Shown: positions 9,407 through 39,100 of the stretch, in pieces
Layout: every line of letters starts with the position of its first letter
How positions within the stretch are numbered: the first letter of the stretch is position 1
Virus record (IMG/VR): IMGVR_UViG_3300025137_000080
Location: 1 to 41,717 of that record
Direction: 5' to 3' (one strand)
DNA: 41,717 bases
DNA from: a virus
The notes under the pieces: generated by a model
Databases searched by the model: none
Seen by the model: only the letters and a program-made list of their open reading frames with translations
What the model was told of the DNA's origin: nothing
Translations under genes and position numbers: made by a program

Positions 9407-12400
9407 ATGGCTAGTCAGAATAACGTAAGATTTGTAGATGCTTTAAAAGTTGGCGCTTATAATGTATTAGATGAAAGTGCTGGTTCAGATGGAAGCTCAG
9501 GGTCCTCTGGAACAAGTGGTTCTTCAGGATCTTCAGGTACTTCTGGAACATCTGGCGATTCAGGTAGTTCAGGCTCAAGTGGATCATCAGGTACATCCGG
9601 AACTTCTGGTATAGATGGTGCAGGCGGATCATCAGGTTCTTCAGGAACTAGTGGTTCTTCAGGTTCAAGTGGTACTTCAGGTACTTCTGGTTCTGATGGT
9701 GGCGGTGGTTCAAGTGGCTCTTCAGGAACTAGTGGTTCTTCTGGAACTTCTGGTATAGAAGGTTCATCAGGTTCTTCTGGAACAAGTGGTATTGATGGTA
9801 CTTCTGGTAGTTCAGGTACAAGCGGGTCTTCAGGTTCATCAGGAACAAGTGGATCTTCAGGTTCAAGTGGTACTTCAGGTACTTCTGGTGATGATGGTGC
9901 AGATGGGTCTTCAGGTTCAAGTGGAACTTCGGGATCAAGTGGTTCAAGTGGAACTTCAGGTATAGATGGAACTTCAGGCTCTTCAGGAACAAGTGGTGTG
10001 GATGGTTCAAGTGGATCATCAGGAACAAGTGGTTCTAGTGGTACATCAGGTTCAAGTGGCTCTTCTGGTACAAGCGGTAGTTCTGGTTCAAGTGGCACAT
10101 CCGGTTCAAGTGGCAGTTCAGGCACTTCTGGTATAGATGGTACAAGTGGTTCTTCAGGTACTTCTGGTACTTCAGGACAAGACGGTTCATTTGGTGGTGC
10201 TTCGTTTGATTATACTTTTGAAACAGATACTGATACATCAGATCCTGGTTCAGGAAAAGTAAAATTAAATAATTCTACTCAGCCTTCTGCAACAGCGGTA
10301 TACATTAGTCAAACAGATGATGCTGGTAACAGTATAGAAGCATTCTTAGAAACAGTAAAAGCTTCAACAGGTGCCGTAAATGGTCACATAAGAATATCAG
10401 ATAAATTTAATACAAATGATTTTGTTTTATTTGCAATTACAGATTTAACAGATAATGGGGATTGGTGGACATTAGCAGTAAGTAATGAAGCTTCAGGTGG
10501 AAGTGCATTTACTGATGGAGAAGATGTAATTTGTTCTTTTGTTGTAACAGGTGATTCTGGTTCAAGTGGATCTTCAGGTACTTCAGGTATAGACGGAACT
10601 TCTGGTTCAAGTGGAACATCAGGTATAGATGGTACAAGTGGCTCTTCTGGTACTTCAGGTGTAGATGGTTCAAGCGGATCATCAGGAACATCAGGTGATA
10701 GTGGTTCAAGTGGTTCATCTGGAACAAGTGGTAGTTCCGGTTCAAGTGGAACTTCAGGTATAGATGGAACTTCAGGATCTTCAGGAACAAGTGGAATAGA
10801 CGGTACAAGTGGTTCATCAGGAACAAGTGGTATAGATGGAACTAGTGGTTCTTCAGGTACTTCAGGTACGAGTGGAGATTCAGGTTCTAGTGGTTCTTCT
10901 GGAACAAGTGGTAGCTCAGGTTCTTCAGGAACAAGTGGTATAGATGGAGCAGCAGGCTCAAGTGGTTCTTCAGGGACAAGTGGTATAGACGGTACAAGTG
11001 GCTCTTCTGGTACTTCTGGTATAGATGGTGCAGATGGTTCTTCTGGTTCAAGTGGTACTTCGGGTACCAGCGGAGATGATGGTTCAAGTGGAAGTTCTGG
11101 AACAAGTGGTTCTTCAGGTTCATCTGGAACTTCTGGTATAGATGGAGCAGCAGGCTCAAGTGGTAGCTCTGGAACTAGTGGAATAGATGGTACAAGTGGA
11201 TCATCGGGAACAAGTGGTACAGATGGAGCAGGAGGTTCAAGTGGCTCTTCAGGAACTAGTGGTTCTTCAGGAACTTCAGGTTCAAGTGGAAGTTCTGGAA
11301 CATCAGGTATAGATGGTTCAAGTGGATCATCAGGCACAAGTGGAAGTTCAGGAACAAGTGGCTCTTCAGGTTCTTCAGGAACTTCAGGAGTAGATGGAAA
11401 TGATGGTTCAAGTGGATCTTCAGGTACTTCTGGTGATTCAGGCTCAAGTGGTAGTTCAGGTACTAGTGGCTCTTCAGGTTCAAGTGGAACTTCTGGTACA
11501 AGTGGTATAGACGGAACTTCTGGTTCATCTGGTACAAGTGGTATAGATGGAACTTCTGGTTCAAGCGGTACTTCTGGTATAGATGGAGCAGCAGGGTCTA
11601 GTGGCTCTTCAGGAACTTCAGGTGATGATGGTGCAGATGGTTCTTCTGGTTCTTCTGGAACAAGTGGTTCTTCAGGAACAAGTGGTTCTTCAGGGTCTTC
11701 AGGTACATCAGGTTCAAGTGGAAGCTCAGGTACTAGTGGAGATGAGGGTGCATCAGGTTCAAGTGGAAGTTCTGGTACATCAGGTATAGATGGAACTTCA
11801 GGTTCATCAGGAACTTCAGGAATAGATGGTGCAGCTGGTTCAAGTGGCTCATCAGGAACAAGTGGAACTTCTGGTGTAGATGGTTCAAGTGGGAGTTCTG
11901 GTACTAGTGGTTCAAGTGGATCTTCAGGTACTTCTGGTGATTCAGGCTCAAGTGGTAGTTCAGGTACAAGTGGTATAGATGGTACAAGCGGATCTTCAGG
12001 TACAAGTGGTACAGATGGATCAAGTGGTTCATCTGGAACAAGCGGATCTAGTGGTACATCAGGACAAGATGGTTCATTTGGAGGTGCAACATTTGATTAT
12101 ACTTTTGATATAGATACAACAACTTCAGATCCAGGTAGTGGAGATGTTAAAGTAAATAATTCGGATCAAAATACAGCAACTGCTGTTTATATAAGTCAAG
12201 AAGATGATGCTGGTAATAGTATAGAAGCATTTTTAGAAACAGTAAAAGCTTCAACAGGTGCTGTAAATGGTCACATAAGAATATCAAATAAATTTGATAC
12301 AACTCAATTTATTCTTTGGGCAATTACAAATTTAACAGATAATGGAGCATGGTGGACATTAGCAGTTACACCTGAAGCAAGTTCAGCAACTTCACCTTTC

Positions 12401-15400
12401 ACAAATGGAGAAGATGTACTTTGTTCATTTGTTGTAACAGGTGATTCTGGTTCTTCTGGTTCATCAGGAACAAGTGGTACATCGGGTTCAAGTGGAACTT
12501 CAGGTTCTAGTGGTTCATCTGGAACAAGTGGTTCATCAGGTACAAGTGGTGATGATGGAGCAGACGGTTCAAGCGGTTCTTCAGGAACAAGCGGTTCCTC
12601 AGGTTCATCAGGAACAAGTGGTGATTCTGGTTCAAGTGGCTCTTCAGGTACAAGTGGTATAGATGGAGCAGCAGGGTCAAGTGGGTCTTCAGGAACAAGT
12701 GGTATAGATGGTACAAGTGGTTCATCAGGTACTTCAGGTATAGACGGAGCAGCAGGATCAAGTGGTTCTTCTGGAACTTCAGGTGATGATGGAGCCGATG
12801 GTTCAAGTGGAAGTTCTGGAACAAGTGGTGATTCTGGCTCAAGTGGTTCATCTGGAACAAGTGGCTCAAGTGGTTCTTCTGGAACTTCAGGTGATGATGG
12901 AACAGATGGTTCAAGCGGATCTTCAGGTACTTCAGGTATAGATGGTACAAGTGGTTCTTCAGGTACTTCAGGTATAGATGGTACTAGTGGTTCATCAGGT
13001 ACTTCAGGTATAGATGGTGCAGATGGTTCAAGCGGTAGTTCAGGAACTAGTGGTTCATCTGGTTCTAGTGGAACTTCAGGAATAGATGGTGCAGCAGGTT
13101 CTTCTGGTTCATCAGGAACAAGTGGAACTTCTGGTGTAGACGGTTCAAGCGGTTCTTCAGGAACAAGCGGTTCTTCAGGTTCATCAGGAACAAGTGGTAT
13201 TGATGGAGCAGCAGGCTCAAGTGGTTCATCTGGTACATCTGGTATAGATGGAACTTCAGGTTCATCAGGTACAAGTGGAATAGATGGTACAAGTGGTTCA
13301 TCAGGAACAAGTGGAACTTCGGGTGTAGATGGTTCAAGTGGTTCTTCTGGAACTTCAGGTTCTAGTGGTTCTTCAGGAACAAGTGGAACAAGTGGTGATT
13401 CAGGTTCAAGTGGATCATCAGGTACAAGTGGTACTTCAGGTGATGATGGTTCTTCAGGTTCATCTGGAACAAGTGGAGACTCAGGTTCAAGTGGTTCTTC
13501 AGGAACAAGTGGATCTTCAGGTTCGTCTGGTACTTCAGGTTCAAGTGGATCATCGGGTACTTCAGGAATAGATGGAACATCAGGATCTTCAGGAACAAGT
13601 GGTATAGATGGAACTTCTGGTTCAAGTGGTACATCAGGTTCAAGTGGAACTTCAGGTTCAAGTGGGTCATCAGGAACAAGTGGTACAAGTGGTTCATCAG
13701 GAACTTCAGGTGTAGATGGTGCAGATGGTTCGAGTGGAAGTTCAGGAACATCAGGATCAAGTGGTAGTTCAGGTACAAGTGGGTCTTCAGGACAAGATGG
13801 TTCATTTGGTGGTGCTTCGTTTGATTATACTTTTAAAACAGATACTAATACAAGTGAAAATCCAGGAACAGGTAATATTAGATTAAATAATTCTACTCAA
13901 CCTTCTGCAACAGTATTATCTATAAGTCAAGATGATGATGATGGAAATAGCATTGAATCTTTCCTTCAAACTGTAGAGGCTTCAAATTCAATACCAAAAG
14001 GTCATGTAAGATTATTTGATAAAGATGATGCAAGTGATTTTATTGTTTTTGCTATTAATAATCTTGTAGATCAAGGTGATTATTGGACCTTAACAGTTGC
14101 AAGTGAAGTACAAGGTGGTAATGCATTAACAGATGGTGAAGATATTGTAGCATCCTTTGTTGTAACAGGAGATAGTGGTTCATCAGGTTCTTCAGGAACA
14201 AGTGGCTCTTCAGGAACAAGTGGTTCTTCAGGTTCTTCAGGAACTTCAGGAATAGATGGAGCAGCAGGCTCAAGCGGTAGTTCAGGTACAAGTGGTACTT
14301 CGGGAACATCAGGTGATAGTGGCTCAAGTGGTTCATCAGGAACAAGTGGTTCTTCTGGTTCTTCAGGAACTTCAGGTACAAGTGGAATAGATGGTACAAG
14401 TGGCTCTTCAGGTACAAGTGGTACTTCAGGTGATGATGGAGCAGACGGTTCAAGTGGCTCTTCAGGAACAAGTGGTTCATCAGGAACAAGTGGTAGTTCA
14501 GGTTCATCAGGAACTTCAGGCTCAAGTGGATCATCTGGTACAAGTGGTATAGATGGTACAAGTGGTTCATCTGGTACCTCAGGAACATCAGGTGATAGTG
14601 GCTCAAGTGGTTCTTCAGGAACAAGTGGCTCTTCAGGATCATCAGGAACAAGTGGGATAGATGGTACAAGCGGAAGCTCAGGTACAAGTGGTACTTCAGG
14701 TGATGATGGAGCAGATGGTTCAAGCGGTTCTTCAGGAACAAGTGGTAGTTCAGGTTCTTCAGGAACAAGCGGTTCTTCAGGAACAAGTGGTAGTTCAGGT
14801 TCATCAGGAACTTCTGGTGTAGATGGTTCAAGCGGATCATCAGGTACAAGTGGTGATGATGGAGCAGACGGTTCAAGCGGTTCTTCAGGAACAAGCGGTT
14901 CTTCAGGTTCATCTGGAACTTCAGGAATAGATGGTGCAGCTGGTTCAAGCGGAAGTTCAGGAACAAGTGGAACTTCTGGTGTAGATGGTTCAAGCGGATC
15001 ATCAGGTACAAGCGGATCTTCAGGTTCATCTGGTACAAGCGGATCTTCAGGTTCATCTGGTACTTCTGGTTCAAGTGGAAGTTCAGGAACAAGTGGTATA
15101 GATGGAGCAGCAGGTTCAAGTGGTTCTTCTGGAACTTCAGGAACATCCGGTGATAGTGGTTCAAGCGGATCATCAGGTACAAGCGGATCCTCAGGTTCAT
15201 CAGGTACAAGCGGAACTTCTGGTGTAGATGGTTCAAGTGGTTCTTCAGGTACAAGCGGTTCAAGTGGTTCTTCTGGAACTTCAGGAACAAGTGGTGATTC
15301 TGGTTCAAGTGGTTCTTCAGGAACAAGTGGCTCATCAGGTTCATCAGGTACAAGTGGTGATGATGGAGCAGACGGTTCAAGTGGCTCTTCAGGAACTTCA

Positions 15401-17641: not shown

Positions 17642-17644
17642 ATT

Positions 17645-18379
17645 ATGCCAAATCTTACAGCCGTACGATATTCAAGAGCCGTTGGAACACTAGCATCAAA
17701 TTCTTTTACAACAGCAAGAGAATCTGATTCAAATAGTTTTAATGATTCTTCAACTTCATCTAACTTACAATCAATACAGTTTTTTAGAGACTCAGGAAAA
17801 GGAAACTCAAATTATAGATTTTATAGATTTTTTGCAGTATTTGATTTTAGTAGTTACGTTGGATATACAATAACAAATTTAAAATTTAATTATAGATCAA
17901 CTACTTCTACAGCTGTTTCAGGATTAGGTACTGGTTTAGGTGCAACCATATTCGAATTTAATGGAATGGGAAGTGGTCCATCCTTTTCACAATATTCTAA
18001 TTCAGAATTTTTTGATGACATTGATTTTACTGAAAATTATTCTCCTGATTCGGGTACAGTTGAACAATGGACAGATGCAAATTCATCTGCTACTTTAGAT
18101 TTAAACTCTACCGCTACTGCAGCAGCATCGTCGACAGGAGAATTAAAAATAGCAATTGTACAATATCCAAATGATGCTACTGATACTGATCAAGGAGATG
18201 ATGTATATTATAGATATTATCTAAATTTTAATACTCCATCTAGTGGTTTTGTTCCTTTTATGTCTTTTGATGCTGTAGCTCCGGGTTATGGTAATGAAAT
18301 TGTTGATGTAAGTAGTGCTAATATTGGTGAGGTTGTTGATGTAGCAACAGGAAATATATCTACGGTAGTTGGTGTATAG
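17645..18379 (+). CDS. 244-aa accessory fibre / virion surface protein
   Basis: It starts 3 bp after the giant fibre gene and is surely co-expressed with it. It is Ser/Thr/Asn-rich and predicted all-beta: residues ~45-200 alternate short strands (RFYRFFAVFDFSSYVGYTIT, then LKFNYRST), a layout like carbohydrate-binding or DNRLRE-type jelly rolls. The C-terminus has three imperfect short repeats (NEIVDVSSA / NIGEVVDVATG / NISTVVGV) of the kind seen at the ends of phage virion proteins. There is no signal peptide or membrane helix. A role as fibre tip, fibre-associated adhesin or chaperone is inference. After it comes the promoter of the sugar operon. Confidence 0.72.
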   Translation: MPNLTAVRYSRAVGTLASNSFTTARESDSNSFNDSSTSSNLQSIQFFRDSGKGNSNYRFYRFFAVFDFSSYVGYTITNLKFNYRSTTSTAVSGLGTGLGATIFEFNGMGSGPSFSQYSNSEFFDDIDFTENYSPDSGTVEQWTDANSSATLDLNSTATAAASSTGELKIAIVQYPNDATDTDQGDDVYYRYYLNFNTPSSGFVPFMSFDAVAPGYGNEIVDVSSANIGEVVDVATGNISTVVGV

Positions 18380-18396
18380 TAAAAAATAATAAATAA

Positions 18397-18428
18397 TTGG
18401 GATAGTTTAAATTTTTATTGTATATTAG
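18397..18428 (+). promoter_or_regulatory. Host-like promoter of the glycosylation operon
   Basis: TTG (18397-18399), 21 bp, then TATATTAG (18421-18428), 24 bp before the ATG at 18453. It resembles the Bacteroidota -33 TTTG / -7 TAnnTTTG arrangement and shares the GTATATT core with the boxes at 29051 and 41601. The late-type 15-mer is absent here. Confidence 0.55.
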
Positions 18429-18452
18429 TAAATAAAATAAGTTATAAACAAT

Positions 18453-21400
18453 ATGGGAAAACCCAAAATATATGCACATAGTTGTTATATAGGTCATACA
18501 GGTTACAATAACCATACACGAGATTTTTTTAGAGAATTATCTAAATCCTTTGAAATTAAAGTAAGGAACTTTACAGTACCTACTTATTGGAATGGTTATA
18601 ACTTAGAACCTTTTAATGAGGAAGATTATTTAACTAATCTTGATAAAAAACTTTTAGTTTCACAAGCTTTATTTGGTAAGGAACAATTTTTAGTAGATAA
18701 AGATTTATATACTAATTATCCAAATAATTTTAACCATGATCTTAATATAGTTTTAGCTGAATGTAATCATCACTTTTTTTACCAAAATTATAATGGCCCA
18801 AAAATAGGATATACAGTTTGGGAAACTACTAGATTACCAGAACAATTTTTTAATAGTTTAAAAGAATATGACCAAGTTTGGGTAGCATCTAAATGGCAAA
18901 GAGAATGTACTATAGAACAGGGTATGGATAAAGATAAAGTAAAAGTAGTACCTGAAGCTGTTGATAGTAATACTTTTTACCCTAATGAAAAATCTACTTT
19001 ACCTGAATATGATGATGATAGATTTAAATTTATTTTATTTGGTAGGTGGGATTATAGAAAATCAACAAAAGAAATAATAAAATCATTTTTAGAAGAATTT
19101 AATAAAGATGAACCTATTGATTTAGTATTATCTATTGATAATGTATTTGCTAAAGATAAATTTGAAACAACTGAAGAAAGATTAAAACATTATAAATTAG
19201 TTGACCCTAGATTAAAAATAAAACATTTTCCTACAAGAGAAGAGTATATAAAATATTTACAAAAAGGCCATGTATTTTTATCTTGTGCCAGGTCTGAAGG
19301 ATGGAACTTACCGTTAATAGAAGCTATGGCTTGTGGAACTCCTTCTATATATTCTAATTGTAGTGCTCAACTTGAATTTGCTAAAGGAAAGGGACTACCC
19401 GTTAAAATAAAAGGAACAATCCCAGCTTTAGGTGGAGAATATTCAACATATTCCCAATCAGATTTACCTGGGGAATTTTATCAACCTGATTATGAAGACT
19501 TAAAAAAAGTAATGAGAGATGCTTATAAAAATTATGGTAAACATAAAAAGAAAGCATTAATAGAATCCGAACAAATTAGGAATAAATTTACTTGGGAAAA
19601 TGCTGTAAAAATAGCTAATAAAGAAATTAAATATCTATATAATAATATCCAACCTAACGAAATAAAAATAACATTTAATTCAGGCCCTAAAGTAGAAATT
19701 GTAGGTTCTAAAAATCAAAAATATTTTATTGAATTTATAAATGGAGAAAATAATGAAGTAATACATTCTTCAAATATAGAAAATAATATGTGGACTCAAT
19801 GTAATAAAACATATTATATTCCTTGGGTAATAAAAATTAATGGTGAAGTAGCACATACTTTTAATTTAAAAGATAAAACTGTAAAAATATCATTTGACTC
19901 AAATTCTCTAGGTGATACATTAGCTTGGGCTCCACAAGCAGTTGAATTTCAAAAGAAACATAATTGTAAAGTAATAATATCAACATTTCATAATAGTTGG
20001 TTTGAAAAACAGGAAGAATATAAAAATTTAACTTTTATAAAACCAAATAAAGGATGTAAATCTTATGTCCAATATAAAATAGGTTGGTTTAGAAGTGAAA
20101 GTGGTGATTTTAAAAATAGTAAAGATCATCCAAATCAAGTTAATACAATACCTTTAATTCAGGCAGCAACAGATATTTTAGGTCTTCCTTATAAAGAAAT
20201 TAATTATGGTGTTTATTTTAAACCTAAAAAAAGACCTATAAAACAAAAATATATTTGTATCGGGCCCCAAGCAACTTCTGGTTGTAAAGAATGGCCCCAT
20301 GATAGGTGGAAAGAATTAGCTACTAAATTTAAGGTTAAAGGATATAAAGTAATAAGTTTAAGTTTAAAAGGATTTAATGGGCCTAATATTATAAGCAAAA
20401 ATAATTTACCTTGGGATGAATTATTTAATTACCTATACCATGCAGAATTATTTATAGGATTAGGATCAGGTTTATCTTGGATTAATTGGGCATTAAATAA
20501 ACATACATTAATGCTTAATGGGTTTTCAACACCAGAACATGAATTTACAAATAATATAACTAGAGTTCAAAATTTTAATGTTTGTAATGGTTGCTGGACA
20601 AAACCAGAATCGGTTTTTGATGCTGGAGATTGGGATTGGTGTCCAATAAAAAAAGGAACTGATCAACAACATATATGCCAAAAATCAATCACAGTAAATC
20701 AAGTATTAAATAAATCTTATAAAATTTTAAACCCAACAAATAAAGATGATTTTATTTGGATTACTGGAGGTGATAAACATTACCTATCTATGATAGAGGT
20801 ATTAGCTAAAAGTTTATTAAAACATTCAAAATATAAATTAATTGTTTATGGATTCAATTGTGATTCAGAAATTAATTTGCCTAATGTTATTAATAAAAGA
20901 GTAGATTTTAATCGTAAAAAAGATATAGTTTGGAGTGGTGAACAAGACTTAATTAATAAAGATTTTTCTTTATACTATGCTAAATATTTAGCTAGTATTG
21001 ATTCTATAGAAGAAAATTATGATTTTTATGCTTGGTTAGATGGAGATGCTTTTGTTACTGAACATATAGATAAATCTTTAAAGTATTTAAATTTAGTAAG
21101 AGATTATCCTCTATTTATGAGATATTATCATGAAGATATAGGACAGTGGAGGTCTTATAATGGTATTAAGCTACAAGGCAGATATGGAACTGAAATTTGT
21201 GACTTTAAAAATATTGAAAGAAACCCTAATAATAGAATTATAGCTACTGGTTTTTATTTTTATGATATAAATTCTTTACCTTTTTTTAATGAATGTTTAG
21301 ATATACATAAAGAACTAAATAATTACCACTTAACAGTTTTTGTAGACGATAATGCTTTATCAGAAGAAAGAATAGCTAATTATATAATGTGGAGAGATAA

Positions 21401-22175
21401 TAATAATTCTTATTTACCTGTAACTTGGGATAATTATTATAGTAGTAAAGAAGAAATAAAAGTACCAAATAAACTTACTAAAGAAGGATTTGATGTAATG
21501 TACGATGAAAAATCTCTTCTTCCTTATTTTTTTCATGGACCAGACCCATCAGTTAAGAAAAAAAATGCTAATGTATTAAACCATGCCTTTAATGAAACTA
21601 TTCTAAAAAAATTAATGATTATATCCCATCCAGATGATGAATTAATTTTTGGTGGGGCCGAATTAATAAATTATGGTCATGAATATAAAATTGTATGTAT
21701 TACTAATCCTAAGGATAAAACTAGAGTAAAAGAATTTTCTCAAGTAATGGGTGAATTAAATATTGGATCGTGGGAACTTTTAGATTATGAAGATACTCTT
21801 TATCCTAATACTCAAACTTTAAATCTTTCTAGATATTTTAAAGATAATAAGTGGGAAAAAATAGTAACTCATAATCCAATTGGGGAATATGGACACCCAC
21901 AACATAAATTATTATTTGATACAGTCAAATCTTTTACAGATAATTTTTATGTTTTTGGAAAATCAGATAAAAAATTAGATAATTTAATCTTACATAGAAA
22001 AAAACAATTATTAGATTTATATAAAGTAGAAAAAGATATTATAAATCATATTTTAACTAATAATGGTAATTGGTTTAAAAATAATAACAATACTAATTAC
22101 ATAGAATATGAATGTATAGAAAAATATGATCCTAAAAAAGACACAACAAAATATATAGCTTGTTATGATAAATAA
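18453..22175 (+). CDS. Four-domain glycosyltransferase: GT4 + autotransporter-heptosyltransferase-like + GT-A + PIG-L deacetylase
   Basis: A 1240-aa cytoplasmic multidomain enzyme. Residues 1-~400 are a GT-B family-4 glycosyltransferase with RSEGWNLPLIEAMACGTP (E282-x7-E290). Residues ~405-760 match the autotransporter O-heptosyltransferase family (TibC/AAH): NGENNEVIHSSNIENNMW, SLGDTLAWAP at 485, ATDILGLPY, FIGLGSGLSW, and a four-cysteine motif (C711, C714, C730, C742) spaced like that family's iron-binding finger. Residues ~768-1050 form a GT-A fold transferase with DGD at 863-865. Residues ~1053-1200 are a PIG-L/LmbE deacetylase with HPDDE (1059-1063) and GHPQH (H1148, H1151). Heptosyltransferases of this family modify Ser in repetitive adhesins, so the neighbouring Ser-rich fibre is the likely acceptor (inference). 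It overlaps the next gene by 11 bp. Confidence 0.88.
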   Translation: MGKPKIYAHSCYIGHTGYNNHTRDFFRELSKSFEIKVRNFTVPTYWNGYNLEPFNEEDYLTNLDKKLLVSQALFGKEQFLVDKDLYTNYPNNFNHDLNIVLAECNHHFFYQNYNGPKIGYTVWETTRLPEQFFNSLKEYDQVWVASKWQRECTIEQGMDKDKVKVVPEAVDSNTFYPNEKSTLPEYDDDRFKFILFGRWDYRKSTKEIIKSFLEEFNKDEPIDLVLSIDNVFAKDKFETTEERLKHYKLVDPRLKIKHFPTREEYIKYLQKGHVFLSCARSEGWNLPLIEAMACGTPSIYSNCSAQLEFAKGKGLPVKIKGTIPALGGEYSTYSQSDLPGEFYQPDYEDLKKVMRDAYKNYGKHKKKALIESEQIRNKFTWENAVKIANKEIKYLYNNIQPNEIKITFNSGPKVEIVGSKNQKYFIEFINGENNEVIHSSNIENNMWTQCNKTYYIPWVIKINGEVAHTFNLKDKTVKISFDSNSLGDTLAWAPQAVEFQKKHNCKVIISTFHNSWFEKQEEYKNLTFIKPNKGCKSYVQYKIGWFRSESGDFKNSKDHPNQVNTIPLIQAATDILGLPYKEINYGVYFKPKKRPIKQKYICIGPQATSGCKEWPHDRWKELATKFKVKGYKVISLSLKGFNGPNIISKNNLPWDELFNYLYHAELFIGLGSGLSWINWALNKHTLMLNGFSTPEHEFTNNITRVQNFNVCNGCWTKPESVFDAGDWDWCPIKKGTDQQHICQKSITVNQVLNKSYKILNPTNKDDFIWITGGDKHYLSMIEVLAKSLLKHSKYKLIVYGFNCDSEINLPNVINKRVDFNRKKDIVWSGEQDLINKDFSLYYAKYLASIDSIEENYDFYAWLDGDAFVTEHIDKSLKYLNLVRDYPLFMRYYHEDIGQWRSYNGIKLQGRYGTEICDFKNIERNPNNRIIATGFYFYDINSLPFFNECLDIHKELNNYHLTVFVDDNALSEERIANYIMWRDNNNSYLPVTWDNYYSSKEEIKVPNKLTKEGFDVMYDEKSLLPYFFHGPDPSVKKKNANVLNHAFNETILKKLMIISHPDDELIFGGAELINYGHEYKIVCITNPKDKTRVKEFSQVMGELNIGSWELLDYEDTLYPNTQTLNLSRYFKDNKWEKIVTHNPIGEYGHPQHKLLFDTVKSFTDNFYVFGKSDKKLDNLILHRKKQLLDLYKVEKDIINHILTNNGNWFKNNNNTNYIEYECIEKYDPKKDTTKYIACYDK

Positions 22176-23193
22176 ACGTTGTTTTTTAGTAACTGCCTAT
22201 TGTAATACTTCTGAAAAAAAAGAAGCATTAAAAAATACTATTATTAATATTAAAAAATATAATATTGATATTATTTTATTTTCACACTATCCAATTGAAG
22301 AAGATATACACTTATTAGTAGATTATTCAATATATGATTATAGTAACCCTATATCTAATGTTAAGGATAAATCAATGATAAATTGGAAAAAATTAAATAA
22401 ATTTAGATCTAATCCAATCCCCTTTAAATTAAATACATTATCAGTTGATTATGGTTATGCAGCAGCACAACAATTTAAAAGAGGTTTGTTATTTGCTAGT
22501 AGAATGGGATATGAGGAAGCTATTGTTTTAAATTATGATCTTGAAGTTACTGATAAAATGTTTAATGATTTTAATAAAAATCTTAATAAATATGATAATA
22601 TAATATTAAAATATGGAAATGATGATACTAGTATGTATATGGCATGGTTTGCTTTAAAAATAAAACCATATATAGAAAATATAGAATCAATTAGTTATAC
22701 TGATTATGTTAAAACTGAAATTATAGTTGAAAATTATTTATTTAAAAAATTTAATTCTATTAATAGTTTAATAATCCCCAGAAAAAAATGGGAAGGAGAA
22801 AATCCAAATGAACCTAATATAAAAACTAGCATTGTAATGGAAGGGGATGTTTGGGCTAAATACAATACAGATAAATTTAAATGGTTTATAGGACAAGAAA
22901 AAATATGGTTCGATAATGACCCTGAAGTAAGAGGAACGGATAAAGTAATTTTATTTTTTTGGGATATATTAGAAGATTTAGATGTAAAAATATTTATTAA
23001 TGATAAATTAGTATATAAATCTTTTGTTTATAAAAAATTAGATAATCAATTAATTTATATGCCTATATTATATGATGAATTAAATAAACCTTCTTTAAGA
23101 TTAAAAATTTTCATAAATGATTGGGAAATACCAGAAGAATTAATTAAATTGAGTGCCAACTCAGCAATAGAAATAGCTTATGCCGACCAATAA
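22165..23193 (+). CDS. Putative GT-A-like glycosyltransferase, paralogue 1
   Basis: A 342-aa cytoplasmic protein. Its N-terminus (CFLVTAYCNTSEKKEALKNT) begins with a hydrophobic strand, as in nucleotide-sugar-binding folds. Around residue 125 there is LNYDLEVTD, a D-x-E acid pair where GT-A enzymes carry their metal-binding DxD. The C-terminal ~90 residues are a separate beta-rich region. It is clearly paralogous to the next gene: both share the (A/C)YCN start, a ..SH.P......V.Y.I.D.SNPI block and the NYD(L/I)E(V/L) block. It overlaps the upstream 1240-aa gene by 11 bp and the next by 14 bp. The exact donor and acceptor cannot be read from the sequence. Confidence 0.72.
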   Translation: MINKRCFLVTAYCNTSEKKEALKNTIINIKKYNIDIILFSHYPIEEDIHLLVDYSIYDYSNPISNVKDKSMINWKKLNKFRSNPIPFKLNTLSVDYGYAAAQQFKRGLLFASRMGYEEAIVLNYDLEVTDKMFNDFNKNLNKYDNIILKYGNDDTSMYMAWFALKIKPYIENIESISYTDYVKTEIIVENYLFKKFNSINSLIIPRKKWEGENPNEPNIKTSIVMEGDVWAKYNTDKFKWFIGQEKIWFDNDPEVRGTDKVILFFWDILEDLDVKIFINDKLVYKSFVYKKLDNQLIYMPILYDELNKPSLRLKIFINDWEIPEELIKLSANSAIEIAYADQ

Positions 23194-24211
23194 TCTAGTA
23201 ATAATCACTTGTTATTGTAATAGTAAAAAAAAAGAACAACTATTACATAAAAATATCAACAAAATTAAAAGTCATGGTTTTGACATTTTAGTTGTGTCTC
23301 ACTTACCTTTATCAATTGAAATACAAAATAAAGTAGAGTATACTATTTTTGATAAAAGTAATCCAATTTTAAATTATCCTTATAGAGGCATAGCTTTTTG
23401 GAAAACTTTTACTCACAAAAATAGACCTATTAAAATACAAAATGTTCTTGATGATTATGGGTGGACAGCTTTTAATCAAATTTTTATAGCATCTAATTTT
23501 TCTTTACCTCTTCAAAAATATGAAGAAGAACCTACTCAAGGGAGAAAATGGGCTACATATGATAGTTCATTTAAATATGATTATTTTAGTTTTATAAATT
23601 ATGATATAGAATTAACTAAAAATATAATTGGTGATTTAAAAAACCCAATACCTATTTTAACATCAAGAGTTGAAGATAATCTTAATGAAGTAGGATATAG
23701 ATTTCCTAGTTTTATGTTAAATATTTTTGATAGAAAACATTTAGAAAAATTAATATCTTTATTTGATAAACAATTTTATATGAAAGATACCCATCCTCAT
23801 ATTGAAGGTAATAAATTTACAGATGCTGAACATTATTTTAAACATTTAATATCTGTTTTTGATTATGTAATACACCCTGATAATATTAAGGATTTAATGT
23901 TATTTGAAGATATTACTCTTTTTAATAAAAGTAATACTGAAGATTTTAAGTTATTTATACAAAATGACAATACATTTAAAAAATTAAAATCAAATTCTTG
24001 GGTACCTAGATTATTTATTTATGATGTTAAAGTAAAATTAAATATTAAAGTAAATAATAAAACATATAAGTTAAAAGAAAGTGAAAGTATTATTTTAGAT
24101 CTACCTAAAATAGAAAAATTAGGAATCGAATATAAAGATGAGTACTTAAACTTGTTAGAAGAATATAAATCAGCTAATTACTCCTTTATAAATTATTTAG
24201 ATGAAAAATAG
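23180..24211 (+). CDS. Putative GT-A-like glycosyltransferase, paralogue 2
   Basis: A 343-aa protein with the same plan as its upstream neighbour: an N-terminal VIITCYCNSKKKEQLL strand-helix, FDILVVSHLPL, IFDKSNPI, and the acid pair in INYDIELTK (D142, E144). Its middle part differs (RFPSFMLNIFDRKHLEKLIS, DTHPHIEGNKFTDAEH), which points to a different acceptor or sugar. The two genes look like a tandem duplication followed by divergence. It overlaps its neighbours on both sides (14 and 11 bp), so the whole operon is translationally coupled. It could alternatively belong to a related family of capsule/LPS-modifying transferases. Confidence 0.72.
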   Translation: MPTNNLVIITCYCNSKKKEQLLHKNINKIKSHGFDILVVSHLPLSIEIQNKVEYTIFDKSNPILNYPYRGIAFWKTFTHKNRPIKIQNVLDDYGWTAFNQIFIASNFSLPLQKYEEEPTQGRKWATYDSSFKYDYFSFINYDIELTKNIIGDLKNPIPILTSRVEDNLNEVGYRFPSFMLNIFDRKHLEKLISLFDKQFYMKDTHPHIEGNKFTDAEHYFKHLISVFDYVIHPDNIKDLMLFEDITLFNKSNTEDFKLFIQNDNTFKKLKSNSWVPRLFIYDVKVKLNIKVNNKTYKLKESESIILDLPKIEKLGIEYKDEYLNLLEEYKSANYSFINYLDEK

Positions 24212-25385
24212 AAAAAGTTGTGCCTCGTGTAGTGGAAGAAAATTTGATATAATATATGATTTTGGTAAAATACCATTAGCTGGTAGTTTTCCTAAAGAAA
24301 ATCAAAATATAGAATATTTTCCTTTAAAAATAATAAAATGTAAAAAATGTGGGTTAGTTCAAACTGATACTTTAATTGAACCTAAAGTATTGTTTAAAGA
24401 TTATAGATACATTTCATCAGTTGGCATGCAAAAACATTTTAATTCATATGCTGATTGGTTAGTTAGTAAAGAAGGTGTAAAACCTATTGATAATGTGTTA
24501 GAATTTGGTTGTAATGATGGTCCTTTACTAGATGCATTAAAATATAGAGGGATACATAATACCATAGGTATTGATCCTGCTACTAATATTGTAGAATTAG
24601 GTAGAAAAAAGGGATTAAATATTGAAAATGATTTCTTTAATAGTAAATTTGTTGAAGATAATAGGTGGGAAAATAAATTTGATTATGTTTTAGCAAGTAA
24701 TACTTTTGCTCATATAACAGATATTAACTCAGTTGTTAAAGGAGTTGAACAAACTTTAAAAAAGGATGGTAAGTTTATAATTGAAGTACAATATTTAGTT
24801 GATTTAGTTGATAAATTTCAGTTTGATTTTATGTACCATGAACATTTATATTATTATACTATTACGAGTTTAAAAACTTTACTTTCTAAACATAATCTTA
24901 AAATAATCGATGTTGAAAGGGTACCAATACATTCAGGGTCAATTAGAGTAATTGCAACTAAAGATTTAAATGTTAAGGTTAATAGTATAGTAGAAGAGTT
25001 AATAGAAAGTGAAAAAGAATATAAGGATTTAAGTAACTTTTCTTTATCAATTGAAAAAGCATTATCTAATTTAAAAACATTTTTAGATAATAATAAAGAT
25101 AAAAAAATAATAGGTTATGGTGCTTCTGGTAGGGCTAATGTAGTTGTAGGTACTTTAAATTTAGATGAAATTTATATCGACTATATCATAGATGAATCAC
25201 CAGAAAGATATAATAGGTTGACTTCCAATGGGAAAATTCGTATATTGCCCCCATCTAAAATAGGTGAAGCGGACTATATTTTAATTTTTGCTTGGAATTT
25301 TTCTGATATGATAATAGAAAAAACTAAACATTTAAATATTCCTTATATTATTCCCTTCCCAGAATTAAAAATTATTAACCCATGA
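24201..25385 (+). CDS. SAM-dependent sugar C-methyltransferase (TylCIII/NovU-like)
   Basis: A 394-aa enzyme with the three-part layout of nucleotide-sugar C-methyltransferases. First is an N-terminal zinc-binding region with C7, C10, C47 and C50 (CASC...CKKC). Second is a Rossmann methyltransferase domain with VLEFGCNDG at 99-107 as the SAM-binding loop and an H-rich patch MYHEHLYYYT. Third is a C-terminal domain containing IIGYGASGRANVVVG. Family members methylate a ring carbon of 4-keto deoxysugar nucleotides, producing branched sugars. The keto sugar could come from the dehydratase encoded next (4-bp ATGA overlap). In this operon the product most plausibly feeds the glycosyltransferases upstream. 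Family assignment is firm; substrate is inferred. Confidence 0.86.
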   Translation: MKNRKSCASCSGRKFDIIYDFGKIPLAGSFPKENQNIEYFPLKIIKCKKCGLVQTDTLIEPKVLFKDYRYISSVGMQKHFNSYADWLVSKEGVKPIDNVLEFGCNDGPLLDALKYRGIHNTIGIDPATNIVELGRKKGLNIENDFFNSKFVEDNRWENKFDYVLASNTFAHITDINSVVKGVEQTLKKDGKFIIEVQYLVDLVDKFQFDFMYHEHLYYYTITSLKTLLSKHNLKIIDVERVPIHSGSIRVIATKDLNVKVNSIVEELIESEKEYKDLSNFSLSIEKALSNLKTFLDNNKDKKIIGYGASGRANVVVGTLNLDEIYIDYIIDESPERYNRLTSNGKIRILPPSKIGEADYILIFAWNFSDMIIEKTKHLNIPYIIPFPELKIINP

Positions 25386-26311
25386 ATGGAGAAAAAATAT
25401 TTATAACTGGTGGTGCTGGTTATTTAGGTTCTAATTTAGTAGCTCGTTATTATAATAATAATGAAATAACTGTATATTCTAGAGATGAAGCTAAACATTA
25501 TTACCTTAAAAAAAGATTTCCAAATATTAACTGTGTTATAGGAGATGTTCGTAATTTTGATTTATTAAAAAGGTCTTCTAAAGGGCATACTATTGGTATT
25601 TTTGCTGCTTCATTAAAACAAATAGAGGCTGTAGATCAAAATGTAGAAGAAGGAGTTAAAGTATTAATTAATGGGTCTATTAATTCAAGAAGAGCAGCAG
25701 AAGAAAATAATTTTAAATCAGCATGCTTTATATCATCAGATAAATCTCGTTCGGCAACAACTTTATATGGTTCTATGAAATTTATAGCGGGTGAATCCTT
25801 TATAGTAAATGCTGAAAAATCAAATGTAAGGTTATCATCTGCTATTTATGGTAATGTTTTAAATTCAACGGGTAGTATTATTCCTTTAATTTGGGATGCT
25901 ATAAATAAAAATTATAAACTTACTTTATATTCTGAAGAAATGACACGTTTTATGATTAATATTAAAGACGCAATGGATTTAATAGAAGAGGGATTAAAAG
26001 TTAGTGGATTTAATATAATACCCAATTTAAAATCCTTTAAAGTAAAAGATTTATTTGAAATATATAATAAGAAATTTGGACTAAAGTACAAAATAGGTAA
26101 GCCTAGAATATCAGAAAAAATACATGAAATAATGATATCAAAAGAAGAGGCTCCAAGAACATTTTATAGTAAAGAAAATGATGTATTTTATATGCATTAT
26201 AAAAATATAGCAGAAGATTCTATACAAAATGAATTTTCTAGCTATGAAACAATAGTAAGTAAATCTGAATTAAGTAAAATTTTAACTTACTATAATTTTT
26301 TTAAAGTTTAA
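25382..26311 (+). CDS. SDR nucleotide-sugar 4,6-dehydratase/epimerase (PseB/CapD-like)
   Basis: A 309-aa extended short-chain dehydrogenase. It has the NAD(P)-binding GGAGYLG loop at residues 10-16, the SSDK segment (D120-K121) and Y129-x3-K133 (YGSMK) active-site motif, and MTRFMI near 187, all as in UDP-GlcNAc 4,6-dehydratases/5-epimerases of the PseB/CapD group. Such enzymes make 4-keto-6-deoxy sugars, substrates for amino-transfer or C-methylation. It overlaps the methyltransferase gene by 4 bp. It is the last gene of the sugar operon; a late-type promoter for the following gene begins 3 bp after its stop. No aminotransferase or reductase is present in the window, so later steps must be done elsewhere or by the host. 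Confidence 0.83.
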   Translation: MNGEKIFITGGAGYLGSNLVARYYNNNEITVYSRDEAKHYYLKKRFPNINCVIGDVRNFDLLKRSSKGHTIGIFAASLKQIEAVDQNVEEGVKVLINGSINSRRAAEENNFKSACFISSDKSRSATTLYGSMKFIAGESFIVNAEKSNVRLSSAIYGNVLNSTGSIIPLIWDAINKNYKLTLYSEEMTRFMINIKDAMDLIEEGLKVSGFNIIPNLKSFKVKDLFEIYNKKFGLKYKIGKPRISEKIHEIMISKEEAPRTFYSKENDVFYMHYKNIAEDSIQNEFSSYETIVSKSELSKILTYYNFFKV

Positions 26312-29087: not shown

Positions 29088-29891
29088 ATGTCAAATGTAG
29101 TAAAAATTAAAAGAGGTCGTCCAAGTCGAAAAATTGGTAAAATTGTTAAAAGATTTAAACCAAACACAATGAAAATGGATGATTTTAAATTTGATCCTCA
29201 ATTATTTATTCCTATGAAAACAGGAACTAAAATTGATAATTTACTTTCAAGTGAAGGTGGAATGATGAAAGGTACTAATGTAGCATTTGTTGGTGATCCT
29301 GGAGTTGGTAAAACAACTGTATTATTAGACATGCTTGCTAATATGAAAAATAAGGGCAATAAAGTATTATTTATCTCAGGTGAAATGACACAAATTGATA
29401 TGGTGGGAATGGTTAAAAGATTTCCTAAATTTGGTCAATTGCCTATTTTATTTATGGGTGACTGGATCGAAAATGACCCATTAGTTATTTTAAAATCAAT
29501 TTTAAGCGAAGGTTGGGACTCAGTTTTAGTAGATTCGTTTGCTGAACTTGCAGTTGCTATTCAAGATTTTCATGGAGGTACAATGAAAAATGCAGAAACT
29601 CAATTATTAAATTTATTTGAAAAACATAATAAAGGTGAAAATTTAAATAAATTAAACACTAATTTTATGATCATACAGCAGGTGACCAAAGGTGGAGAAT
29701 TCGCTGGTAGTAACCGGTTTAAACACATGATTACCGCGATGGCGCATATGAAATTTAATGCTGAAGGTGGTAGAGCAATATGGTTTAGTAAAAATCGTAG
29801 AGGTGGAGAAATGAATAAATTACATTTTAGCTTAGATCAAGCTAATCATGTTGGGTGGTTATTTACTGAGCCTTTAAATATGACAATATAA
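29088..29891 (+). CDS. RadA/Sms-like RecA-family ATPase with N-terminal AT-hook-like motif
   Basis: A 267-aa single RecA-type ATPase domain. Walker A is GDPGVGKT (69-76). SGEMTQ corresponds to the family's E-containing second strand, and VLVDS (D149) is Walker B. WFSKNRRGG (K235-N236-R237) matches the KNRFG-type motif that defines RadA/Sms, a DnaB-like helicase acting on recombination intermediates. The zinc finger and Lon-like C-terminal domain of cellular RadA are missing. Instead the basic N-terminus has KIKRGRPSRKIGK, with the RGRP core of an AT-hook (residues 9-12), suited to minor-groove binding of AT-rich DNA. It lies alone between tail genes, with its own host-like promoter and terminators on both sides. 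UvsX-like recombinase or a DNA-packaging ATPase are less likely alternatives. Confidence 0.85.
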   Translation: MSNVVKIKRGRPSRKIGKIVKRFKPNTMKMDDFKFDPQLFIPMKTGTKIDNLLSSEGGMMKGTNVAFVGDPGVGKTTVLLDMLANMKNKGNKVLFISGEMTQIDMVGMVKRFPKFGQLPILFMGDWIENDPLVILKSILSEGWDSVLVDSFAELAVAIQDFHGGTMKNAETQLLNLFEKHNKGENLNKLNTNFMIIQQVTKGGEFAGSNRFKHMITAMAHMKFNAEGGRAIWFSKNRRGGEMNKLHFSLDQANHVGWLFTEPLNMTI

Positions 29892-36129: not shown

Positions 36130-39100
36130 ATGCTGGGGAATATAATAGGAGGAGGATTAGATCAAATAACATCATCCCAATTAAAAGTACGTCAAACAGT
36201 AGCAGCTGCAGGGTATGGAGATAACTATATCCAAAGAACCCCAGAAATAATAAATTATTTAAATAATCGTAATGCATGGATTAAATTTGCATCTGGGGTA
36301 AATATTGGAGGTCAATATGCATCAGAAAAAATAAAAAATATATTTGAAGATTCTGGTATTACTATTAATACTGATGATACATCAAAATTAGGCTTAAATG
36401 GTTCAAATTTAGCTCAACAATTTGTCTTATTTAATGGAACAAGTACTATAAACGCAGATAGTAATTGGGATTTTAGATCAGGAGTTGCAACATCAAATAA
36501 TTATAGAGATACTTTTGGTGCTTCTGCTTTATATGGAGGAATAGGTCAGGATAGAGGATTACAACCGGGACCAGGTGTTAAAAATTTAAAAATTAAAACA
36601 TTAAATAGGGGTTCTATTAGAAAAGCAACCATTACTATAAAATGTTATAATAAACTGCAGTTTAATATTATTGAAGCTTTATATCTTAGATTAGGTTATA
36701 ATATGCTTGTTGAATGGGGTTATGACAAATATGTTGCTAGACTCCCCGACCTAGATAAAAACCCTCAAAATACAATAGATAATAATAATCCCTCATTTAG
36801 GTTAATTGAAGATGTAAAAGATACGTTAGTAGAAACTGGGTTTTTTCAAGCTGGATTTAAAAATGATGATGTTTATAGTAGCATTGAATCTTTAAGATCA
36901 CAATATGCTGGGAATTATGATGGTTTTTATGGTAAAGTTCAAAATTTTTCGTGGAAAATTAACACAGATCTTACTTATGATATTACAATTGATTTAGTAA
37001 CTATTGGTTCCTTAATAGCTTCTTTAAAATCAAATATCCCGGCAGCAATAAGCTCAGCTAATATAACTGATTTATCTCAAAATTTGGGTAATATAGTTGA
37101 TTTAAATGAATATGAAGCATCAAAAAAACAAGAATATATAGACCAAGACGCAGCAAAATTTATCGCACCCGAAATTGGTACTGATGCTATTTCTATATAT
37201 TTAAATAGTAAAAAAGTTAATTTTAATTCATTAAAAGATGAAGAAGATTACTTATATATAACAGAAATAATTGGGGGTAGTGGAGATGTTATTACTTCAA
37301 ATAGTGCTGCAACAAACACTGCTATTCAAAATATAAGTAATAGATTATATGAAACTATTTCAACCGGATTTCAACAAGCAAGATTTAATTTAGAAAAAAC
37401 AAAAACTAACCGTTATTTTATAAGGTTTGGTAGATTTTTAGATGATTATTTTGATCTTGTTAATCTTTACATAGTTAAAAATAATCAAAAAAGTGATAAA
37501 AACCAACCAATAATAAATTGGTTACAAACAGATGACACTTACTGTAATTATTCTGCGGATATGGTTCCTTTTGATCCAAGAGTTTTATATTTTAAACCCG
37601 TTTTTTCAGAAATTACAAAACAAAACTGTTTTACTTCAGGAGTTTCTTCAGCTGATAAATTAGCTAATTCTGCTGTAGCTGATTTTACTACTACAAAAAA
37701 GAATGTATTATTAGGGCAAGTAATGAATATGTATTTGAATATAGATTTTTTACTTAAAGAGTTAGGAAAAAATGTAGATAAAAAGGGAAATATATCAACT
37801 TTTATTTATATCCAAAATGTTCTAAATGGCATAAATAAAGCTATGGCAAACCAAACTCAATTAGAATTATTTGTTGATAACGATAAAGATGTAAAAATAA
37901 TAGAATTAAATACACCTAAAGGAATAACAAAATTAACTCCAAAAAACGATTTTATATTTGAAGCTTATGGGTACGGCGTTAACAATAACCAGGCTAGTAT
38001 TATTCAAAATTTTAATATAAAAACTAAAATAACCCCAGACCTTATTAATTTAATTTCAATTGGGGCAACATCTCCTGAATCTCAAACCAATGGGGTAAAA
38101 GCTTTATCATTTAATAATTTTAATAGAGGATTAATAAATAGATTTGAACCCTCATATGATCAACCCCCTATAGAAGTTGGACCAGTTTCTGTAGAAACAA
38201 AATTAGACACTCAAGAAAGTTCAATTTTAGCTGCGTTTAGGAACACATTTAAAAATGATATAGCAACAAGAAAATCAAACTCAAGCCATAGTAACTATGA
38301 TAGAGGTATGGATTCTAATACAAATAAAACAAAAGGTAGATTTTATTGGGGATATACTTGGGGTGATGGAATGGTTGGAATAGCACAAGGTGGTAATTCG
38401 AGTGGTATTCCCCAATTTGATATTACTTGGGAATCTCCTAGTGGTGGAACATTAAAATTAGAATTTAAAGGAAATAATATACCTGGTGGTTATGCTATAG
38501 ATGATAAAGGTTATAATAAATATTATTTACATTGGGGTAAAAATTTAAATAATGCTGAGTATTGGATTGGAGAATCAGCTGGAAGATGGAAAGGAGAAAT
38601 TAAAGGAAAAATTTTAAAAGAAACTAAAAAATATTTAGCAAGTTTAGCTGGTACTGAAGTAAGATTTAATACAGACCCAGCTAATTATCAAGAATACTTA
38701 ACAGAGGCTTTTGGAGGAGATTTTAATTATAATATTGACACTGCTGATACATCTCAAGGAGATGTACAAAATGTTGCAGTTGTCGAACAAAGACAGGTAT
38801 CTATATCTAATGCTAAATGGTTTGAAATTAACCCAAGTTTTATAAATCAAGGGATATCTTTATATAAATTAAATAGAGCAGAACAAGATGTAGTTGATTA
38901 TAAAAAAAATGGAGTAGTATCTAATTCTACTGGTTTTATACCTATTGAATCTAGTTTTGATTTAGATGGTATTTCTACTTTTAAAATATTTCAAAAAATT
39001 AATGTAAGTCAAAACTTTTTACCAAATAATTATCCTAGTACTTTAAGTTTTATTATTAAAAATATTGACCATACGTTAAAAGATAATGCTTGGACTACAT

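What the first reader, a model, noticed from the sequence alone, without database searches (positions are those of the whole stretch)
9407..26311. Candidate phage system for O-glycosylating its own giant collagen-like fibre
A 2744-aa fibre made largely of Gly-Ser-Ser/Gly-Thr-Ser triplets is followed, on the same strand, by an overlapping operon of sugar enzymes. One of these contains a domain matching the autotransporter O-heptosyltransferase family, whose known job is to glycosylate Ser in repetitive surface adhesins. The other products (GT4, GT-A enzymes, PIG-L deacetylase, C-methyltransferase, 4,6-dehydratase) could make and elaborate an unusual sugar. Seen: sequences, motifs and adjacency. 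Known: the enzyme family's repetitive Ser acceptors. Inferred: that the fibre is the substrate, giving a decorated, antigenically or mechanically protected fibre.
Basis: partly seen in the sequence, partly recalled or inferred. Interest (0 to 1): 0.9.

Follow-up and report, generated by a model that had tools for sequence, protein, structure and literature searches.

The report
Phage sugar-coating system for collagen-like fibre
This phage carries a very long, serine-rich collagen-like fibre next to enzymes of a family known to attach sugars to serines of repetitive surface proteins, and the same fibre-enzyme pairing recurs in very different phages and even in bacteria, so these phages probably sugar-coat their own fibres.

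Summary
ORF 9407-17641 has 689 Gly-X-Y triplets (310 GSS, 220 GTS; 1110 Ser/Thr, 3 Pro, 0 Lys). P0003 (18453-22175) residues 401-755 pass the NCBIfam equivalog cutoff for TibC/AAH O-heptosyltransferases (229.6 vs 200 bits).

Of 50 viral records (>=20 kb) chosen only for Gly-Ser/Thr ("GST") fibres, 21 encode the enzyme; of 50 with Gly-Pro-Gln collagens, none do. Conversely 31 of 42 enzyme-bearing records hold the fibre (34 with a looser test), against 0 of 17 close relatives lacking the enzyme. One relative has the same fibre anchor with a different shaft and no sugar operon.

A tree splits the family. TibC and its relatives (52) have no GST neighbour. The phage clade also contains bacterial enzymes beside small lipoproteins that share only the GSS/GTS repeat. 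This clade keeps the catalytic residues and iron finger, but is about 10 residues shorter in the segment holding TibC's ring-forming thumb, and in phages usually lacks the adenine-binding Arg (5/39 keep it, versus 52/52 in TibC's clade). So "O-glycosyltransferase of the fibre" is well supported; "heptosyl" is doubtful.

No chemistry was measured. The benefit (stiffening or shielding) is inferred.

The parts
9407..17641 (+). Giant collagen-like virion fibre, 2744 aa (proposed acceptor)
   Evidence: ORF; Pfam Collagen E 3e-264; PHROG tail-fibre families; 689 Gly-X-Y triplets, 1110 Ser/Thr, 3 Pro
9407..9481 (+). Fibre N-terminal part (MASQNNVRFVDALKVGAY..), shared with a relative (L401) whose shaft is different; presumed virion anchor
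9482..10201 (+). GSS/GTS collagen block 1 (aa 26-265)
10202..10549 (+). Globular module 1 interrupting the shaft (aa 266-381)
   Evidence: homologues in other phage fibres, 'fibmod'
10550..12088 (+). GSS/GTS collagen block 2 (aa 382-894)
12089..12439 (+). Globular module 2 (aa 895-1011)
12440..13816 (+). GSS/GTS collagen block 3 (aa 1012-1470)
13817..14167 (+). Globular module 3 (aa 1471-1587)
14168..15517 (+). GSS/GTS collagen block 4 (aa 1588-2037)
15518..15877 (+). Globular module 4 (aa 2038-2157)
15878..17101 (+). GSS/GTS collagen block 5 (aa 2158-2565)
17102..17638 (+). C-terminal non-collagen domain of the fibre (probable tip; role inferred)
17645..18379 (+). P0002, 244 aa, no family match; possible fibre-associated protein
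18453..19637 (+). P0003 domain 1: GT4 glycosyltransferase, nearly always fused to the TibC/AAH-like domain in phages
   Evidence: Pfam PF00534 E 6e-10; 34 of 36 newly fetched GT4 relatives have the TibC/AAH-like domain in the same locus
19653..20717 (+). P0003 domain 2 (aa 401-755): TibC/AAH-type O-glycosyltransferase; catalytic Asp = D488, Lys = K612, Trp = W676, iron-finger Cys 711/714/730/742; adenine-contact Arg replaced by L657
   Evidence: TIGR04414 229.6 bits vs cutoff 200; TibC 4RAP E 4e-42; residue mapping
20718..21602 (+). P0003 domain 3 (aa 756-1050): GT-A glycosyltransferase fold of the glycogenin/GT8 or GT6 type, DGD motif
   Evidence: AF2 model pLDDT 88; Foldseek best hit glycogenin E 2e-7
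21609..22172 (+). P0003 domain 4: PIG-L-type N-deacetylase (HPDDE and HxxH motifs)
   Evidence: PF02585 E 9e-9; conserved in relatives, fused or as a separate gene
22165..23193 (+). P0004, probable GT-A-like enzyme, paralogue of P0005
   Evidence: 28% identity to P0005, E 2e-16; no Pfam, NCBIfam or PHROG family
23180..24211 (+). P0005, probable GT-A-like glycosyltransferase
   Evidence: AF2 pLDDT 86.5; Foldseek KdsB, GlcAT-P, LH3 and glycogenin E ~3e-4 to 1e-3, TM below 0.4
24201..25385 (+). P0006, sugar C-methyltransferase type (Methyltransf_13/23/14)
   Evidence: accessory, found in a minority of relatives
25382..26311 (+). P0007, PseB/FnlA-like nucleotide-sugar 4,6-dehydratase; SDK..YGSMK motif present
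   Evidence: PF02719 E 4e-40; TIGR03589 154 bits, below equivalog cutoff

Best explanation
The phage makes its own virion-fibre glycosylation system. In the infected cell, the TibC/AAH-like domain of P0003 attaches the first sugar to Ser (perhaps also Thr) of the Gly-Ser/Thr-Ser triplets of the newly made fibre. The GT4 and GT-A domains fused to it, with P0004 and P0005, extend the glycan. PIG-L, P0006 and P0007 supply or trim an unusual (deacetylated, 6-deoxy, C-methylated) sugar. The decorated fibre, anchored through its N-terminus, is displayed on the virion. With almost no proline in the shaft, the sugars probably stiffen or protease-proof it, and they may shield it or tune what it binds. 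Shown: the fibre, the family membership, catalytic-residue conservation, specific co-occurrence of repeat and enzyme in phages and bacteria, and coupled presence or absence at the window's own locus. Inferred: that the repeat is the acceptor; that the acceptor is Ser; the sugar identity; virion display; the benefit.
For: (1) Family: TIGR04414 above cutoff, TibC structure match E 4e-42; catalytic D, donor-binding K and W, and four iron-finger Cys essentially invariant in 52 phage domains. (2) Fibre-first test: 21/50 GST-fibre records encode the enzyme vs 0/50 GPQ-collagen records, Fisher p 7e-8; 13/40 vs 0/48 for records under 90 kb, p 1e-5; 8/10 of GST records of at least 90 kb. (3) Enzyme-first test: 31/42 records hold strict GST runs (reversed-pattern control 0 everywhere), 34/42 with a looser test; 0/17 enzyme-lacking sheath relatives do. 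(4) Proximity: usually under 5 kb, same-strand or convergent, even in 100-735 kb genomes. (5) Locus states: L401 has the same fibre N-terminus, a non-GST shaft and no sugar operon; L427, L442 and L447 lack both. (6) Tree: the GST-associated clade (51 rows, 37 with GST nearby) is separated 100/100 from the TibC clade (52 rows, 0 with GST). (7) Bacterial members of the GST clade sit beside lipoproteins sharing only the GSS/GTS repeat with phage fibres.
Against: No measured glycan, no proteome, no expression data. 29/50 GST-fibre records lack the enzyme; part of this is probably fragmentation, but not all (104 kb and 135 kb records lack it). 8 of 42 enzyme records show no GST fibre even with the looser test, and the 636-kb phage LR756504 has the enzyme with no strict GST run. 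Ser preference at Y does not differ between fibres with and without the enzyme (p 0.41), so it is not itself a signature of this enzyme. Records are not phylogenetically independent, so the p-values are descriptive.
Confidence: 0.76

Rival explanations
1. The operon remodels the host's LPS or O-chain to block superinfection by competing phages, as was proposed for glycosyltransferases in host-recognition islands of pelagimyophages. The fibre is only a neighbour in the same variable island.
For: PMC7029224 reports many glycosyltransferases in the host-recognition cluster of SAR11 myophages and reads them as O-chain modifiers. PMC10747093 likewise reads a huge-phage heptosyltransferase I as an LPS enzyme. 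The accessory genes P0006/P0007 are typical of O-antigen loci.
Against: The key domain belongs to a protein O-glycosyltransferase family, not the LPS ones: TIGR04414 229.6 bits vs TIGR02193 (LPS heptosyltransferase I) 26 bits. An LPS enzyme should not track GST repeats rather than GPQ collagens, nor pair with GST lipoproteins in bacteria.
Confidence: 0.12
2. The fibre is glycosylated, but the TibC/AAH-like domain adds ADP-heptose exactly as AAH/TibC do, taken from the host's LPS pathway.
For: Catalytic D, K, W and iron finger conserved; bacterial members of the same clade mostly keep the adenine-contact Arg (8/12).
Against: Arg286, which reads adenine in TibC (PMC4358343), is Leu here and is kept in only 5/39 phage-clade enzymes, against 52/52 in the TibC clade. 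The operon carries UDP-HexNAc-type enzymes (PseB-like, PIG-L), which points to a different donor.
Confidence: 0.22
3. The enzymes glycosylate another virion protein (for example P0002 or the capsid) or phage DNA; association with the fibre reflects shared hosts or lineages.
For: Capsid and tail-tube glycosylation is known in mycobacteriophages (Freeman 2023, as cited in PMC12619734). P0002 lies between fibre and operon.
Against: The association recurs in phages whose enzymes are only 32-45% identical, in two gene arrangements and up to 735 kb, and in bacterial lipoproteins. P0002 homologues are found in few of the relatives.
Confidence: 0.1

Closest known systems
Bacterial autotransporter heptosyltransferases TibC / AAH (TIGR04414; PDB 4RAP, 4RB4; eLife 2014 PMC4358343)
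   Same: Same domain family above the curated cutoff; catalytic Asp110, Lys230, Trp305, Thr226 and the four iron-finger Cys conserved; adjacent gene encodes a long Ser-rich repetitive surface protein
   Different: Acceptor repeat is collagen-like G-S/T-S, not a strand-loop-strand beta-helix; fused behind GT4 and ahead of GT-A and PIG-L; adenine-reading Arg286 usually lost in phages; about 10 residues shorter in the region of the beta-hairpin thumb that closes the TibC ring; separate clade (100/100)
Mimivirus L230 collagen hydroxylase/glucosyltransferase
   Same: Virus-encoded enzyme that glycosylates a virus-encoded collagen-like protein
   Different: L230 glucosylates hydroxylysine with an unrelated glycosyltransferase (reviewed in PMC9614988); here the shaft has no Lys and the enzyme is a GT-B TibC/AAH-like one acting on Ser/Thr
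Bacillus anthracis BclA exosporium collagen O-glycosylation
   Same: Bacterial collagen-like filament with O-linked unusual methylated sugar on Thr of short triplets (own knowledge; cited in PMC9614988 references)
   Different: Spore protein with GPT triplets and different glycosyltransferases
Mycobacteriophage virion glycosylation (Freeman et al. 2023)
   Same: Phage-encoded glycosyltransferases decorate virion proteins
   Different: Targets capsid and tail-tube C-termini; not collagen fibres and not this enzyme family (known here only as cited in PMC12619734)
Prophage tail-fibre collagens of E. coli O157:H7 (EPclA)
   Same: Phage-encoded collagen-like tail fibres
   Different: Proline-rich, thermostable without sugar, tested non-glycosylated as recombinant protein (PMC3368898)

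Membership tests
BAHT family (TIGR04414, TibC/AAH) | Profile match above curated equivalog cutoff | tested here: met
   229.6 bits vs 200; seven of eight relatives tested score 294-342, the eighth (L032) 218
BAHT family (TIGR04414, TibC/AAH) | Catalytic Asp110, donor-binding Lys230, Thr226, Trp305 | tested here: met
   D488, K612, T608, W676; 50-52 of 52 phage domains
BAHT family (TIGR04414, TibC/AAH) | Four-Cys iron finger | tested here: met
   C711, C714, C730, C742; conserved in all full-length members
BAHT family (TIGR04414, TibC/AAH) | Arg286 reading the adenine of ADP-heptose | tested here: not met
   Leu657 here; Arg in 5/39 phage-clade, 8/12 bacterial clade-A and 52/52 TibC-clade sequences
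BAHT family (TIGR04414, TibC/AAH) | Beta-hairpin thumb needed for the dodecamer ring | tested here: not met
   Segment TibC 250-298 is 49 aa in the TibC clade, median 39 in phages and 40 in bacterial clade A; loss of the thumb is inferred from sequence, no structure was made
BAHT family (TIGR04414, TibC/AAH) | Acceptor is an autotransporter passenger | tested here: not met
   Neighbour is a collagen-like phage fibre; no autotransporter in the window
BAHT family (TIGR04414, TibC/AAH) | Transfers heptose to Ser | not testable with these tools
   Needs enzymology or mass spectrometry
Collagen-like protein (PF01391) | Long uninterrupted Gly-X-Y repeats | tested here: met
   689 triplets in five blocks; E 3e-264
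Collagen-like protein (PF01391) | Folds as a triple helix | not testable with these tools
   3 Pro in 689 triplets makes an unmodified stable helix doubtful (plus general knowledge)
LPS heptosyltransferase (WaaC/WaaF) | Profile match above cutoff | tested here: not met
   TIGR02193 26.3 bits vs cutoff 185
PseB UDP-GlcNAc 4,6-dehydratase (P0007) | Equivalog cutoff of TIGR03589 | tested here: not met
   154 vs 407.8 bits: related enzyme, exact sugar unknown

The most novel reading that the evidence does not exclude
A second ancient branch of the TibC/AAH family is a dedicated glycosyltransferase for Gly-Ser/Thr-Ser collagen-like repeats. It works without TibC's ring, in phages mostly with a non-ADP sugar donor, and serves phage fibres (T4-like to 735-kb phages) and bacterial lipoproteins. 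This would be a widespread, unrecognised phage virion-fibre O-glycosylation system.
Probability: 0.55. Interest if true: 0.82.

Novelty: new variant of a known kind. Interest (0 to 1): 0.74.

Why it matters
Glycosyltransferases in marine phage host-recognition islands are usually explained as LPS or DNA modifiers. This gives a specific, testable alternative for a whole class of them: O-glycosylation of the phage's own fibre. It would explain how nearly proline-free GSS/GTS shafts of hundreds to thousands of residues could be stable and soluble. It would add phage-encoded fibre glycosylation to the small list of virion glycosylation systems, and it says that the NCBIfam name 'autotransporter strand-loop-strand O-heptosyltransferase' is probably wrong for many phage and some bacterial proteins. 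It also offers a defined repeat-enzyme pair for glycoprotein engineering.

Tried and rejected
Ser-versus-Thr at position Y as a signature of the enzyme: strong Ser bias everywhere but no difference between fibres with and without the enzyme (p 0.41); not used as evidence.

GT4-only loci as a control: nearly all GT4 relatives found were GT4-TibC/AAH-like fusions (34 of 36), so no useful contrast.

Looking for window-operon homologues (GT4, P0004-P0007) next to enzyme-less GST fibres: none found.

A 'cytidylyltransferase' near the Mel-JY01 enzyme as a possible ADP-heptose synthase: no NCBIfam match; dropped.

First PIG-L conservation count was read out of frame and is void; repeated correctly.

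A combined p-value for proximity in large genomes is only rough, because some genomes hold several fibres; quoted only as distances.

No RNA family was found in the window. No paper on Mel-JY01 or linking heptosyltransferase with collagen-like phage fibres was found in the held library.
Full report
What is in the window. The 41,717-bp record is a fragment of a T4-like myovirus from IMG/VR. It holds prohead protease, scaffold, gp23 major capsid protein (PF07068, E 4e-74), neck genes, then the fibre and sugar genes, then tail sheath, tube and baseplate genes. The closest isolated phage by capsid protein is Flavobacterium phage immuto (55%), then Microcystis phage Mel-JY01 (49%); a Bacteroidota host is a guess from this.

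The fibre. ORF 9407-17641 encodes 2744 aa with 689 Gly-X-Y triplets in five blocks separated by four ~117-aa modules. 77% of triplets are GSS or GTS. There are 1110 Ser/Thr but only 3 Pro and no Lys; Thr is only at X and Ser dominates Y. Collagen shafts normally rely on Pro/Hyp, so this one needs another source of stability, or another fold. That is inference from general knowledge.

The enzyme. P0003 residues 401-755 match TIGR04414 (autotransporter strand-loop-strand O-heptosyltransferase) at 229.6 bits, above the equivalog cutoff of 200, and TibC in the PDB at E 4e-42. The TibC base Asp110, donor-binding Lys230, Thr226 and Trp305, and the four iron-finger cysteines (PMC4358343), are conserved here and in essentially all of 52 unique phage domains. 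The domain is fused behind a GT4 domain; 34 of 36 newly fetched GT4 relatives have the TibC/AAH-like domain in the same locus. Next come a glycogenin-like GT-A domain (AF2 pLDDT 88; Foldseek E 2e-7) and a PIG-L deacetylase. P0004 and P0005 are paralogues; P0005 has a weak GT-A fold match. P0006 and P0007 are accessory: homologues occur in a minority of relatives, while the enzyme core recurs. The sugar therefore probably varies between phages.

Does the enzyme go with the fibre? Test 1 started from the fibre. I took IMG/VR records of at least 20 kb by a DNA pattern for GSSGTSGS, confirmed by a Gly-X-Y score, blind to enzymes. Of 50, 21 encode a full TibC/AAH-like domain (E < 1e-100). Of 50 records chosen the same way for Gly-Pro-Gln collagens, none does; Fisher p 7e-8. 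Restricted to records under 90 kb it is 13/40 vs 0/48 (p 1e-5), and among GST records of at least 90 kb 8/10 have it, so fragmentation explains part of the misses.

Test 2 started from the enzyme. 31 of 42 dereplicated records contain strict runs of four G-S/T-S/T triplets, with zero hits of the reversed control pattern. Three more (L056, L062, L064) pass a looser definition. Of close relatives by tail sheath, 17 lack the enzyme and 0 of these has the fibre. The pair is usually within 5 kb, either on the same strand or convergent, even in genomes above 100 kb; in the 735-kb phage LR756501 a GST ORF lies 3.6 kb from the enzyme.

A natural experiment. At the window's own position (between the neck gene and the sheath) relatives show alternative states. 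L401 has a fibre with the same N-terminus (MASNVRFVDSLKVGQY vs MASQNNVRFVDALKVGAY), but its shaft is not GST collagen and the sugar operon is missing. L427, L442 and L447 have neither. L435 has a GATGDTGIQ collagen and no TibC/AAH-like gene. So the operon travels with the GST shaft, not with the anchor or the position.

Bacteria give an independent test. The closest bacterial relatives of the phage enzymes (Gammaproteobacteria MAGs) are stand-alone enzymes flanked by one or two small ORFs with a lipobox, a short GSS/GTS repeat and often an Asp-rich tail. These lipoproteins share nothing with the phage fibre except the repeat. In a tree of 103 sequences the deepest split (100/100) separates this clade (37 of 51 with a GST neighbour) from the TibC/Burkholderia/Selenomonad clade (0 of 52). 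The MAG contigs were not checked for contamination.

What differs from TibC. All 52 TibC-clade sequences keep Arg286, which reads the adenine of ADP-heptose; only 5 of 39 phage-clade sequences do, and P0003 has Leu. The segment carrying TibC's beta-hairpin thumb, which closes the dodecamer ring, is 10 residues shorter in the phage clade and in most bacterial clade-A members. So the phage enzyme is predicted to act without the ring and probably with a non-ADP donor. 'Heptosyl' should not be carried over from the family name.

Mechanism and its limits. I propose cytoplasmic O-glycosylation of the nascent or assembled fibre by the TibC/AAH-like domain, elongation by the fused and neighbouring glycosyltransferases, and sugar tailoring by PIG-L, P0006 and P0007. 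Acceptor identity is strongly suggested by comparative data but not shown. The donor, the Ser/Thr choice, virion display and the benefit are inferred. The published reading of similar gene islands as LPS modifiers (PMC7029224) remains a rival, but it does not explain the repeat-specific association.

Novelty. In the held literature I found no report linking this family to phages or collagen-like repeats (subscription papers and preprints are largely not held). The nearest analogues are Mimivirus L230 (hydroxylysine glucosylation), BclA of Bacillus, and mycobacteriophage capsid glycosylation. I call it a new variant of a known kind: known enzyme family, new acceptor class and new architecture.

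Noticed in passing
L317:2-3049 (PP395634.1, Microcystis phage Mel-JY01): A GST-collagen ORF (G-X-Y score 149) at the end of the deposited record is not annotated; minus-strand hypothetical CDSs (1-651, 739-2298) are called over it instead.
   Followed up: partly
L320-L329 (Gammaproteobacteria MAGs): Small lipoproteins with GSS/GTS repeats, often with Asp-rich tails, flank stand-alone TibC/AAH-like enzymes: apparently an undescribed bacterial glycolipoprotein cassette.
   Followed up: partly
L509 (LR756501.1, 735-kb phage): 1446 GST-run matches over the record, including a dense stretch near 103.5-105 kb, besides the fibre near the enzyme: extremely long collagen-like genes in a huge phage.
   Followed up: partly
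L056:11368-13041, L053:3376-4248: Records failing the strict fibre test still carry degenerate Ser/Thr-rich repeats such as SGTSSTSGTSS or GTSGTSGVSGSSG in the same locus, so the acceptor may be looser than strict Gly-X-Y.
   Followed up: partly
L510 (LR756504.1, 636-kb phage): Encodes a stand-alone TibC/AAH-like enzyme but no strict GST run anywhere in the record; its acceptor is unknown.
   Followed up: no
window 10202-10549, 12089-12439, 13817-14167, 15518-15877: A ~117-aa module repeated four times inside the collagen shaft; homologues occur in other phage fibres, including six GPQ-collagen control loci.
   Followed up: partly
window 36130-40698: A 1522-aa baseplate-region protein with a weak N-acetylmuramoyl-L-alanine amidase match (Amidase_2, E 0.0016, below cutoff).
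   Followed up: no
window 29088-29891: A RecA/KaiC-like ATPase gene sits inside the tail gene cluster between tube and baseplate genes.
   Followed up: no
L032:11068-11952, L067:11094-11948, L029:11053-11958: A second, more distant GT9-like paralogue lies directly behind the TibC/AAH-like gene in several phages.
   Followed up: no
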